A stretch of 64,000 bases of DNA from Halichondria panicea (Eukaryota; Porifera; Demospongiae; Suberitida; Halichondriidae). The stretch is from the NCBI RefSeq assembly GCF_963675165.1, contig NC_087378.1:1175001-1239000 (forward strand), written 5' to 3'. Made by a program: the position numbers and the translations under genes. The notes beneath the pieces were generated by a model. That model had not been told where the DNA came from. It searched no databases and saw only the letters and a program-made list of their open reading frames with translations. Shown piece after piece: positions 14,401 through 17,400 of this stretch (positions are counted from its first letter, which is position 1; each line of letters opens with the position of its first letter).

Positions 14401-17400
14401 CACTCTGATGAACTATATAAACTCAGGAAGTGGAAGAAGCAGTCGTAAGTGACCCCACCCCCTGCTATGCTGGCACCCCCCTCTCCCTGTCTACCCTCCT
14501 CCCTGTCAACACAGCCAAAGACTCACCCGCCCTTGTCAAGTACTGGTCTCAAAGGTATCGGCTCTTCTCAAAATTTGATGACGGAGTTTGTCTGGATCAT
14601 GGTGAGCACAAAGCTAGCTACCTCCTATACATGCTGTTGGCCTGCTAGTAGTAGCATGAATGGTGAACTGAATGCCTGAAATTTAATGAGATTCGGATAG
14701 AGCTGAACTTATACATTGAAATGTATGCATGCACTTTGGGTCTCTATAGCTACTAGAAATGGGTTTTGTTGTAGTTATGGCTCCATACCATGAGGGAACT
14801 AACGCTGAGCATATCTGCATCCCTGGGTAGGTAATAAGCTATTCTTTTGTACTCCTTTGTTGAGAGTTGTGTGCTTTTATTGTAGCTTCCTAAGTTTTGT
14901 TCTTATTGTGCTACTCTGCAAAAGACATGATATGGATGGGCTAGTGTGATAGTTTTAATTATGAGCTTATGCTATGCTATTCTGTATTTCCAGAGGGCTG
15001 GTTCAGTGCAACTCCGGAGAAGATATCAGAGCACATAGCGGAGCGATGTCGGTGTGACCTCATCGTGGATGCCTTCTGTGGGACAGGCAGCAACGCTATA
15101 CAGTTTGCCTTCACCTGCGAGAGAGGTTAGTACCACTACCTCTAGTGATAAGTTGCCACACCACGTATATAGTATAGGCAAGCATTTCATTCCAGGATAT
15201 GTAACACAACAGCTTTCAGTAAAATTGTAAAAAGTTATGGACGCCTACATACATACATACACCACTGTTTAGTTGTGTTTTGTGTCGTTAATGATCTTTA
15301 CCCACTGCACTATTACTCACCTGCACAGTGATAGCCATAGACATTGATCCAGTAAAGATAGCCTGTGCCGTGAACAATGCGCGGATCTACGGAGTGGAGG
15401 ACAGGATAGAGTTCATTGTGGGAGATTACTTTCTAATAATGCCTCATATCAAGGTACATCATAATCATGTGCACTCTAGCTCTAGTGTGCAATCCATGAG
15501 GTAACTTAACAGTTGCTTATTCTAAATACATATCACTTTTAATGATAATAATAATGATGATATAATAATAATAAAATGTGAACGTTTGGTTTCATCCCAA
15601 TAGTAGCACTGCTATGTCATGTCGTGTTGTATACTCCCACCAACCCCCACTACAGTGTGCTGACGTGGTGTTCCTGAGTCCACCTTGGGGAGGCCCCGCC
15701 TACTCTACTGCGGACGTGTTCGACATTCACACCATGATAGCCATTGATGGATATCCTTATAATCACACACTGCATGCATGGGTACACACACTACACACAC
15801 TGCATGCATCCTGTGCTATTCTCATATCCCTAGCTACTGGAGTGTTTATGGTATCCAATAATAGTCCAAATTTGTGAGAAAATAGTATTGCTGGGCTATA
15901 CATGCCATCCAACCATCCTTCTAGGAGTAGGAGTAGCTACTATACTATATAAGTTGTGTTTGTAGTCTGTGTTCAAAGCTAGCCAGTGTGTAGCCATTGT
16001 GTTGTATATATTTGCATTGCCCCTAGGTACAAGTGCACACCCAGTTAATTGTGTACATGGGGAGTAGCCTTAATTCTTTATGTTAAACAAATTAAAATGA
16101 TCCATGTGTGGTTATAATTATGATACAGCTAATGCATCATTAACTGCCTGACAACTACATAATTCCCTGCACAGCTGGTTTTTACGTTTGTATGGCTTGG
16201 CCGTTGCGTCTACCTCGTTAACTATATTATGAATACACGCGAGATTGATATGTTTGTTAATTTCAGTTTTAATGGGGCCATTTCTGAGTAACGAGCGTAG
16301 AATGTGACACTCCCCCATAAGAGATATTGAATGTCAAACAGTCATCCCTCAGGGCTCACATTTCATGTCGGCATGGTTTGAATGTCGGCAATTAAAAGGA
16401 TCAAGGAAATATTTTTGTTACTGCACATGTCCGTGTGCTCTTTGAAGTCGTGCTTAGAGTTGAAAGTAGAGTTTTGCACCCAATTGTTAAGAGCAAGGCT
16501 GATTCTGTGTAGGCTGGGTTAGGAGTGTTGTGTTTTAAAGGGTGTGGGAAGGTTCGCTGATTTGGTTAAAACTTTTGGCTTACTCCCTCAAAGTGTACTC
16601 CCCCATCTTTAGTGGTTAGTGTAACCTAGTAAGCCTAGACATAACTTCCCAATAATGTATTTGAAGTACAATACAAGTTTTCTGAACCCTGTACTTGCAT
16701 CATTCTCTGTTAATTAGTTGTGGTGTGTATTTAGGAGTAGGTTAACTAACTTTGAGTGCCTTAATTGCTGCATCTTAATTCACGTCAGTACAAAAGATGC
16801 ATACATTCTCTCTACAGCTATTCGGGTGCACACACGTGCATGTGTTTGTTTTGAGATGTACCATGTTAGGCCAATTTGTAAGAGGACCTGCACAAGACTG
16901 TGTAGACTGTGACCATGCCTACCAATAAGTCTGCATACTTGGTGCATGAAAGGACATTGTGCAGTGTCTGTTGACTGGGCAGTATTTGTGATGAGGGCAA
17001 GCATATTGTGTCTGGTTTGGTGGGGAGTATAGTACCTGGCAGGAAGCCAGAGGTTGTGTCTTTCTCTTACTCTGGGTTTGTACAATCTTGGGAGGATACT
17101 CTCTTTGTCTGTTGAGGTTAACAATATTATGTGATGTATAATTATTCTGTGAAACTGATCAGTTTGGTTTGCCAAGAAGCCCCACTGGTGGTGTTGGGAA
17201 ATATTGCCTGCAATGTGGTTTAAGAATTGGAGCCAAGTAATTTGTTGGTCTCGCGTCAGCTGATGATTTCTCATGTATGTCTGCTCATGCTTGTATGTGA
17301 CATACTTACATACGCACGTACTGCATGCATTTACACTATTATTCTTTGACTCCCTGACTCACTGGGCGTGTGTTTCAAGTTGCTAGGGAAGTGACTGAAA

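What the first reader, a model, noticed from the sequence alone, without database searches (positions are those of the whole stretch)
15751..17362. AT-AC U12-type intron splits the catalytic domain of TGS1
Directly visible: the exon ends GATGG, the intron opens ATATCCTT (exact U12 5' consensus), a TTCTTTGAC branch-like site lies 13 nt before a terminal AC, and the join restores the family reading [17 protein letters not shown] introns are rare, and many metazoan lineages have lost most of them. This one sits just after the SPPWGGP motif, so minor splicing is needed for an active enzyme.
Basis: partly seen in the sequence, partly recalled or inferred. Interest (0 to 1): 0.85.

Follow-up and report, generated by a model that had tools for sequence, protein, structure and literature searches.

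The report
AT-AC minor intron in TGS1 gene
The gene for an enzyme that caps splicing RNAs appears to be interrupted by a rare type of intron that a cell's second, minor splicing machine removes; it is a sound new example of a known kind, in a genome whose minor-spliceosome RNA U6atac looks unusual.

Summary
Observation confirmed. TGS1 exons were placed at 14427-14601, 14994-15125, 15329-15453, 15656-15750, 17363-17441 and 23187-23306. Four of the five introns between them are GT-AG. The fifth, 15751-17362 (1612 nt, phase 2), is ATATCCTTA...TTCTTTGAC, then 12 nt ending CAC. The joined protein matches TGS1 (PDB 3gdh, E 6.8e-85) without a gap at the join. The best GT-AG and GC-AG joins score 159 and 168 against 189.

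The genome holds U11, U12, U4atac and U6atac genes, one match each, plus CENATAC/CCDC84 and PDCD7. Three further probable minor introns were found: SELENOM-like (GT-AG), E2F7/8-like (AT-AC) and MFS-like (AT-AC). So this is a real U12-type intron: a new member of a known kind.

The surprise lies elsewhere. The only U6atac gene found has its 5'-splice-site box changed from AAAGG to AGCCG, while U11 and U12 keep their pairing sequences. Its promoter and U4atac pairing suggest a working gene. A second copy in masked sequence is not excluded. RNA evidence and intron position in other animals could not be tested.

The parts
14427..14601 (+). TGS1 exon (EVEEAVV...[21 protein letters not shown]), ends phase 1; earlier exons not placed
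   Evidence: open frame, AG/GT borders, alignment to 3gdh
14994..15125 (+). TGS1 exon with DAFCGTGSN (SAM-binding motif, recalled), ends phase 1
15329..15453 (+). TGS1 exon ([17 protein letters not shown]...), ends phase 0
15656..15750 (+). TGS1 exon with SPPWGGP motif, ends ...ATTGATGG, phase 2
15751..17362 (+). AT-AC U12-type intron, 1612 nt, phase 2
   Evidence: termini, 5' site, branch site, join restores the family alignment
15751..15759 (+). U12-type 5' splice site ATATCCTTA
   Evidence: 8 of 8 match to ATATCCTT; pairs with the U11 5' end, -4.3 kcal/mol
17342..17350 (+). U12-type branch site TTCTTTGAC (branch A at 17349)
   Evidence: pairs with U12, -7.3 kcal/mol
17361..17362 (+). 3' terminal AC of the intron
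17363..17441 (+). TGS1 exon ([26 protein letters not shown]), ends phase 0
23187..23306 (+). last TGS1 exon with stop codon ([39 protein letters not shown])

Best explanation
The stretch 15751-17362 is a genuine U12-type (minor) spliceosomal intron with AT-AC ends in the gene for trimethylguanosine synthase 1 of an unnamed organism, by inference an animal and perhaps a demosponge. Shown: the sequence signals, the restoration of the protein by the join, and the presence of the minor-spliceosome RNA genes and two minor-spliceosome proteins in the same genome. Inferred: the U11/U12 di-snRNP recognises ATATCCTT and the branch site, U6atac takes over the 5' site, CENATAC helps because the intron is of the A type, and removal gives the full methyltransferase domain. 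If the intron is retained, a stop comes 41 residues into it and the enzyme is truncated.
For: Signals at the place homology demands. Ungapped alignment to TGS1 across the join, E 6.8e-85, and Pfam PF09445 at 131.3 bits. Best GC-AG and GT-AG joins score 168 and 159 against 189. All four minor snRNAs above the Rfam gathering score, one match each. CENATAC (best stretch 47.9 bits, cut-off 25.3) and PDCD7 (27.8 bits, cut-off 27) present. Other probable minor introns: SELENOM-like, where the join raises Pfam Sep15_SelM from 24.6 and 25.5 bits for the halves to 60.6; an E2F7/8-like gene with an in-frame AT-AC join, in a family known for minor introns (passage of PMC6865273); an MFS-like gene with an in-frame AT-AC join.
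Against: No RNA reads were available. The only U6atac found pairs weakly with this 5' site in the standard register (-1.8 against -5.4 kcal/mol for the consensus box). The genome-wide count of short canonical minor introns showed no excess: 3 matches (tool's reversed control 1) against 3 with swapped motif order (reversed control 1). Eight joins without known splice termini score as well or slightly better on homology alone. The ninth 5' base and one branch-site base depart from the recalled consensus. PDCD7 barely passes its cut-off.
Confidence: 0.93

Rival explanations
1. An AT-AC intron removed by the major (U2-type) spliceosome.
For: Major AT-AC introns exist in human (a passage of PMC8280824 speaks of 85 major AT-AC introns or related subtypes), and the U6atac found here is altered.
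Against: The 5' site is the U12 octamer and the 3' end has a U12-type branch site at the right distance, with no long pyrimidine tract before AC; the pairing regions of this genome's U11 and U12 fit it.
Confidence: 0.03
2. A GT-AG (or GC-AG) intron with nearby borders, or an extra exon inside the stretch, gives the real transcript.
For: The reading frame stays open from 15751 to the stop at 15877, so a downstream donor is possible.
Against: The six best GT-AG and GC-AG joins, all that were printed, score 168 to 143 against 189 for AT-AC and change the length of the protein; the AT-AC join is ungapped against TGS1.
Confidence: 0.03
3. The locus is a pseudogene or assembly artefact and the intron signals are accidental.
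For: No expression data; the 5' exons were not placed; G000 may contain gaps.
Against: Six exons with intact frame, conserved motifs and a stop at the expected end; PF09445 found no other locus in the genome at E 0.001 (2 matches, two exons of this gene).
Confidence: 0.01

Closest known systems
U12-type AT-AC (A-type, AT-AN) minor introns
   Same: Termini, 5' octamer, branch-site motif, branch-to-end distance; CENATAC, the factor reported to promote splicing of this subtype (abstract and passages of PMC8280824), is present.
   Different: The carrier gene. Searches for TGS1 or trimethylguanosine synthase with minor-intron terms listed 8 of 8, 7 of 7 and 12 of 131 papers; I read passages of two of them for TGS1 and minor introns and saw no minor intron in TGS1 described. 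The word TGS1 is absent from the main text of PMC8280824, PMC6865273, PMC7367187 and PMC6717393.
TGS1 / RNA cap guanine-N2 methyltransferase (PF09445)
   Same: Catalytic domain, SPPWGGP motif, ungapped match across the join.
   Different: One residue more before [13 protein letters not shown] and four fewer near ERC than in 3gdh; the N-terminal exons were not placed.
Minor-spliceosome feedback genes (U11-48K, U11/U12-65K)
   Same: A gene of the minor-snRNP pathway whose own mRNA engages the minor spliceosome.
   Different: The known loop uses U11 binding to a conserved splicing enhancer (start of the abstract of PMC5473595, listing), not an ordinary minor intron; no regulation was shown here.

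Membership tests
U12-type intron | 5' site RTATCCTT at the intron start (consensus recalled) | tested here: met
   ATATCCTT at 15751, 8 of 8
U12-type intron | Branch site near TTCCTTRAC (recalled) a short way before the 3' end | tested here: met
   TTCTTTGAC, 8 of 9 positions, branch A 13 nt before the last base; pairs with this genome's U12
U12-type intron | AT-AC or GT-AG ends that restore the reading frame | tested here: met
U12-type intron | Minor snRNAs U11, U12, U4atac, U6atac in the genome | tested here: met
   one match each over the gathering score
U12-type intron | U6atac box AAGGAGAGA pairing with the 5' site | tested here: not met
   the only U6atac found reads GCCGAGAGA there. This concerns the snRNA, not the intron; a masked second copy is not excluded
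U12-type intron | Removal depends on the minor spliceosome in cells | not testable with these tools
   no RNA or perturbation data
U12-type intron | Position shared with TGS1 of other animals (supportive, not required) | not testable with these tools
   no animal genomes other than G000 on hand
A-type (AT-AN), CENATAC-promoted minor introns | AT-AN termini and CENATAC present | tested here: met
   dependence on CENATAC itself not tested
TGS1 (PF09445) | Score over the curated cut-off and SPPWGGP motif | tested here: met
   131.3 bits against 22; motif in exon 15656-15750

The most novel reading that the evidence does not exclude
In this organism the working U6atac has lost the AAGG half of its 5'-splice-site box (AAAGGAGAGA became AGCCGAGAGA), although minor introns, TGS1's among them, and U11 stay canonical. 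Exact 5'-site choice would then rest on U11 and its proteins, and the hand-over to U6atac would work with few base pairs. In addition, TGS1, which caps Sm-class snRNAs such as U11, U12 and U4atac, needs those same RNAs to splice its own mRNA: a possible feedback loop.
Probability: 0.35. Interest if true: 0.75.

Novelty: new member of a known kind. Interest (0 to 1): 0.42.

Why it matters
It adds a clean AT-AC minor intron in a gene of the snRNP pathway itself. TGS1 makes the trimethylguanosine cap of snRNAs (passage of PMC9881141), so a minor intron in its catalytic domain would tie the enzyme's output to the machine it helps build. It also led to a U6atac whose 5'-splice-site box departs from the one that a paper calls perfectly conserved and characteristic of the minor spliceosome (passage of PMC8283771); if confirmed, nature has made a test of whether that pairing is needed.

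Tried and rejected
Counting short canonical minor introns genome-wide: 3 matches (tool's reversed control 1) against 3 with swapped motif order (its reversed control 1); no excess, so the count is not used as evidence. Of the 3 matches, 2 are near-identical copies; I looked at the two distinct places and both read like introns. I did not look at the control matches.

Second U6atac copy: a 19-base core with up to 3 mismatches gave 38 places, the known gene among them, against 53 for the reversed control; the three places with 2 mismatches show no RNA family up to E 1; a 241-base search with gene and upstream DNA found only itself.

5' site pairing elsewhere in U6atac: in 12-base windows over the first 60 starts the best (-5.8 kcal/mol) lies in the stretch that pairs with U4atac; I set it aside as not the normal register.

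E2F loci: 4 of the 8 fetched were scanned with strict motifs (L014, L015, L018, L019), as were L007-L010. L019 has an AT-AC minor intron (join checked). Motif hits in the other loci lacked a matching 5' site and branch site by eye and were not join-tested. L016, L017, L020 and L021 have the same scores as L015 or L019, look like further copies, and were not scanned.

Rfam on the window: 0 matches at gathering scores, so no curated RNA family was found in the intron. Pfam on the MFS-like join: no family over its cut-off, so that intron rests on frame and signals. U11-48K and other minor-spliceosome proteins were not searched.

Papers: listings; passages of PMC7289441, PMC9881141, PMC10639083, PMC8280824, PMC6865273, PMC7367187, PMC3584512, PMC8283771 and PMC6717393; abstract and outline of PMC2426677.

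Full report
OBSERVATION. The window lies at G000:C2:1175001-1239000 in a 131 Mb genome of 39 contigs. The placed part of the gene, 14427 to 23306, has six exons and five introns: GTGAGC, GTTAGT, GTACAT and GTGAGC donors with AG acceptors, and one ATATCCTTA...CAC intron of 1612 nt in phase 2. The 209-residue stretch from SPALVKYW to the C-terminus matches TGS1 in PDB 3gdh at E 6.8e-85 over residues 2-204, with no gap at the AT-AC join; there are gaps elsewhere, of four residues near ERC and one before ADVVFL. PF09445 scores 131.3 bits on the joined central part. In the whole genome, searched exon by exon, it gave two matches, both exons of this gene.

IS THE JOIN FORCED? I tested in-frame, stop-free joins with donors 15690-15879 and acceptors 17250-17439 against the TGS1 stretch (5120 joins). 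The top nine scores, 195 to 189, have donors within 15750-15760; homology alone cannot choose among them. Only 15750/17363 (189) has termini that spliceosomes are known to use. The next AT-AC pair (186) opens ATCC, not ATATCC, and inserts two residues. The best GC-AG join scores 168 and the best GT-AG 159. The chance of the octamer at one given site is 2.2e-5, and 0.27% of 15,813 AC dinucleotides in simulated sequence have a suitable branch motif upstream. If the intron is retained, 41 more residues follow ...IDG and then a stop at 15877.

MACHINERY. Each of the four Rfam families gave one match over its gathering score: U12 108.1 bits, U6atac 102.6, U11 86.2, U4atac 59.6. None rang in the tool's 14 control genomes; the 11 of these named are prokaryotes, so that control says little. 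All four genes have ACCACA and a TATA-like box upstream, so they look like real genes. CENATAC/CCDC84 has five matched stretches in one locus (best 47.9 bits, cut-off 25.3; two of them read across stops, as across introns) and PDCD7 two (27.8 and 27.1 bits, cut-off 27). CENATAC is reported to promote splicing of AT-AN minor introns (abstract and passages of PMC8280824). U12 pairs with the TGS1 branch site at -7.3 kcal/mol and U11 with the 5' site at -4.3.

OTHER MINOR INTRONS. The pattern TATCCTTT-N20..50-TTCCTTRAC gave three places, two of them near-identical copies. One (C8, minus strand, 76 nt) is a GT-AG intron in a SELENOM-like gene: the two halves score 24.6 and 25.5 bits against Sep15_SelM, the join 60.6. 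The other (C4:5753394-5753471, 78 nt) is an AT-AC intron in a membrane protein that I take for MFS-like by eye; Pfam gave no family over its cut-off, so it rests on frame and signals. In an E2F7/8-like gene (L019 2597-2848, 252 nt; the name is by its two E2F domains) ATATCCTACC...TTCCTTGACTTCTTCTATAC joins ...HKYPH to VAPLFREF in frame. E2F genes are a known minor-intron family (passage of PMC6865273). Motif counts alone showed no excess over controls, so I rest on the joins.

THE ODD U6atac. The Rfam consensus reads UGAAAGGAGAGAAGG; the only copy found reads UGAGCCGAGAGAAGG. The changed bases are those that pair with CCUU of the 5' site (register recalled); the duplex with the TGS1 site falls from -5.4 to -1.8 kcal/mol. 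A paper calls the AAGGAGAGA box interaction perfectly conserved and characteristic of the minor spliceosome (passage of PMC8283771). The copy looks functional: it has the shared upstream elements, and U4atac and U6atac of this genome pair at -26.1 kcal/mol, better than either crossed with the consensus partner (-21.1, -19.0), though weaker than consensus with consensus (-30.8). The bases after the box, GAGAGAAGGUUAGCA, are kept.

HOW IT WORKS. Most likely by ordinary minor splicing. U11/U12 bind the 5' and branch sites, the tri-snRNP with U6atac joins, U6atac replaces U11 (pathway as in passages of PMC3584512), and removal restores the methyltransferase domain. TGS1 trimethylates snRNA caps (passage of PMC9881141); that its own mRNA needs U11, U12 and U4atac suggests a feedback loop, which is inference only. 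Slow excision of U12 introns has been proposed to lower gene expression (abstract of PMC2426677).

WHAT IS NEW. The intron is a new member of a known kind. I found no paper on a minor intron in TGS1. For sponge U6atac, U6atac with Amphimedon gave 0 papers and U6atac with Porifera gave 2, on insect telomerase RNA and on a hydroid genome by their titles, not read; the broader one search listed 15 of 3,527 papers, none holding U6atac, and says little. Supplements and most subscription papers were out of reach. The U6atac box, if confirmed, is the more surprising result.

Noticed in passing
L004 1501-1628 minus strand (G000:C17:3379775-3379902): The only U6atac gene found has AGCCG in place of AAAGG in its 5'-splice-site pairing box, while U11 and U12 keep their pairing sequences.
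   Followed up: partly
L022 (G000:C8, about 467208-467283, minus strand): A 76-nt GT-AG U12-type intron in a SELENOM-like gene with an in-frame UGA at CSG-UGA-RLN.
   Followed up: yes
L023 (G000:C4:5753394-5753471): A 78-nt AT-AC U12-type intron in a gene that looks MFS-like by eye; a near-identical copy lies at C4:5809765.
   Followed up: partly
L019 2597-2848 (G000:C11): A 252-nt AT-AC U12-type intron in an E2F7/8-like gene; matches with equal scores lie elsewhere on the same contig.
   Followed up: partly
window 9396-11798 (minus) and 12098-14293 (plus): Two long open frames that look by eye like similar kinase-Kelch proteins in inverted orientation, just upstream of the placed TGS1 exons, with the window's 200 N between them; they may sit inside a TGS1 intron.
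   Followed up: no
L003-L006 upstream regions: All four minor snRNA genes have ACCACA and a TATA-like box upstream, the U6atac gene included.
   Followed up: partly
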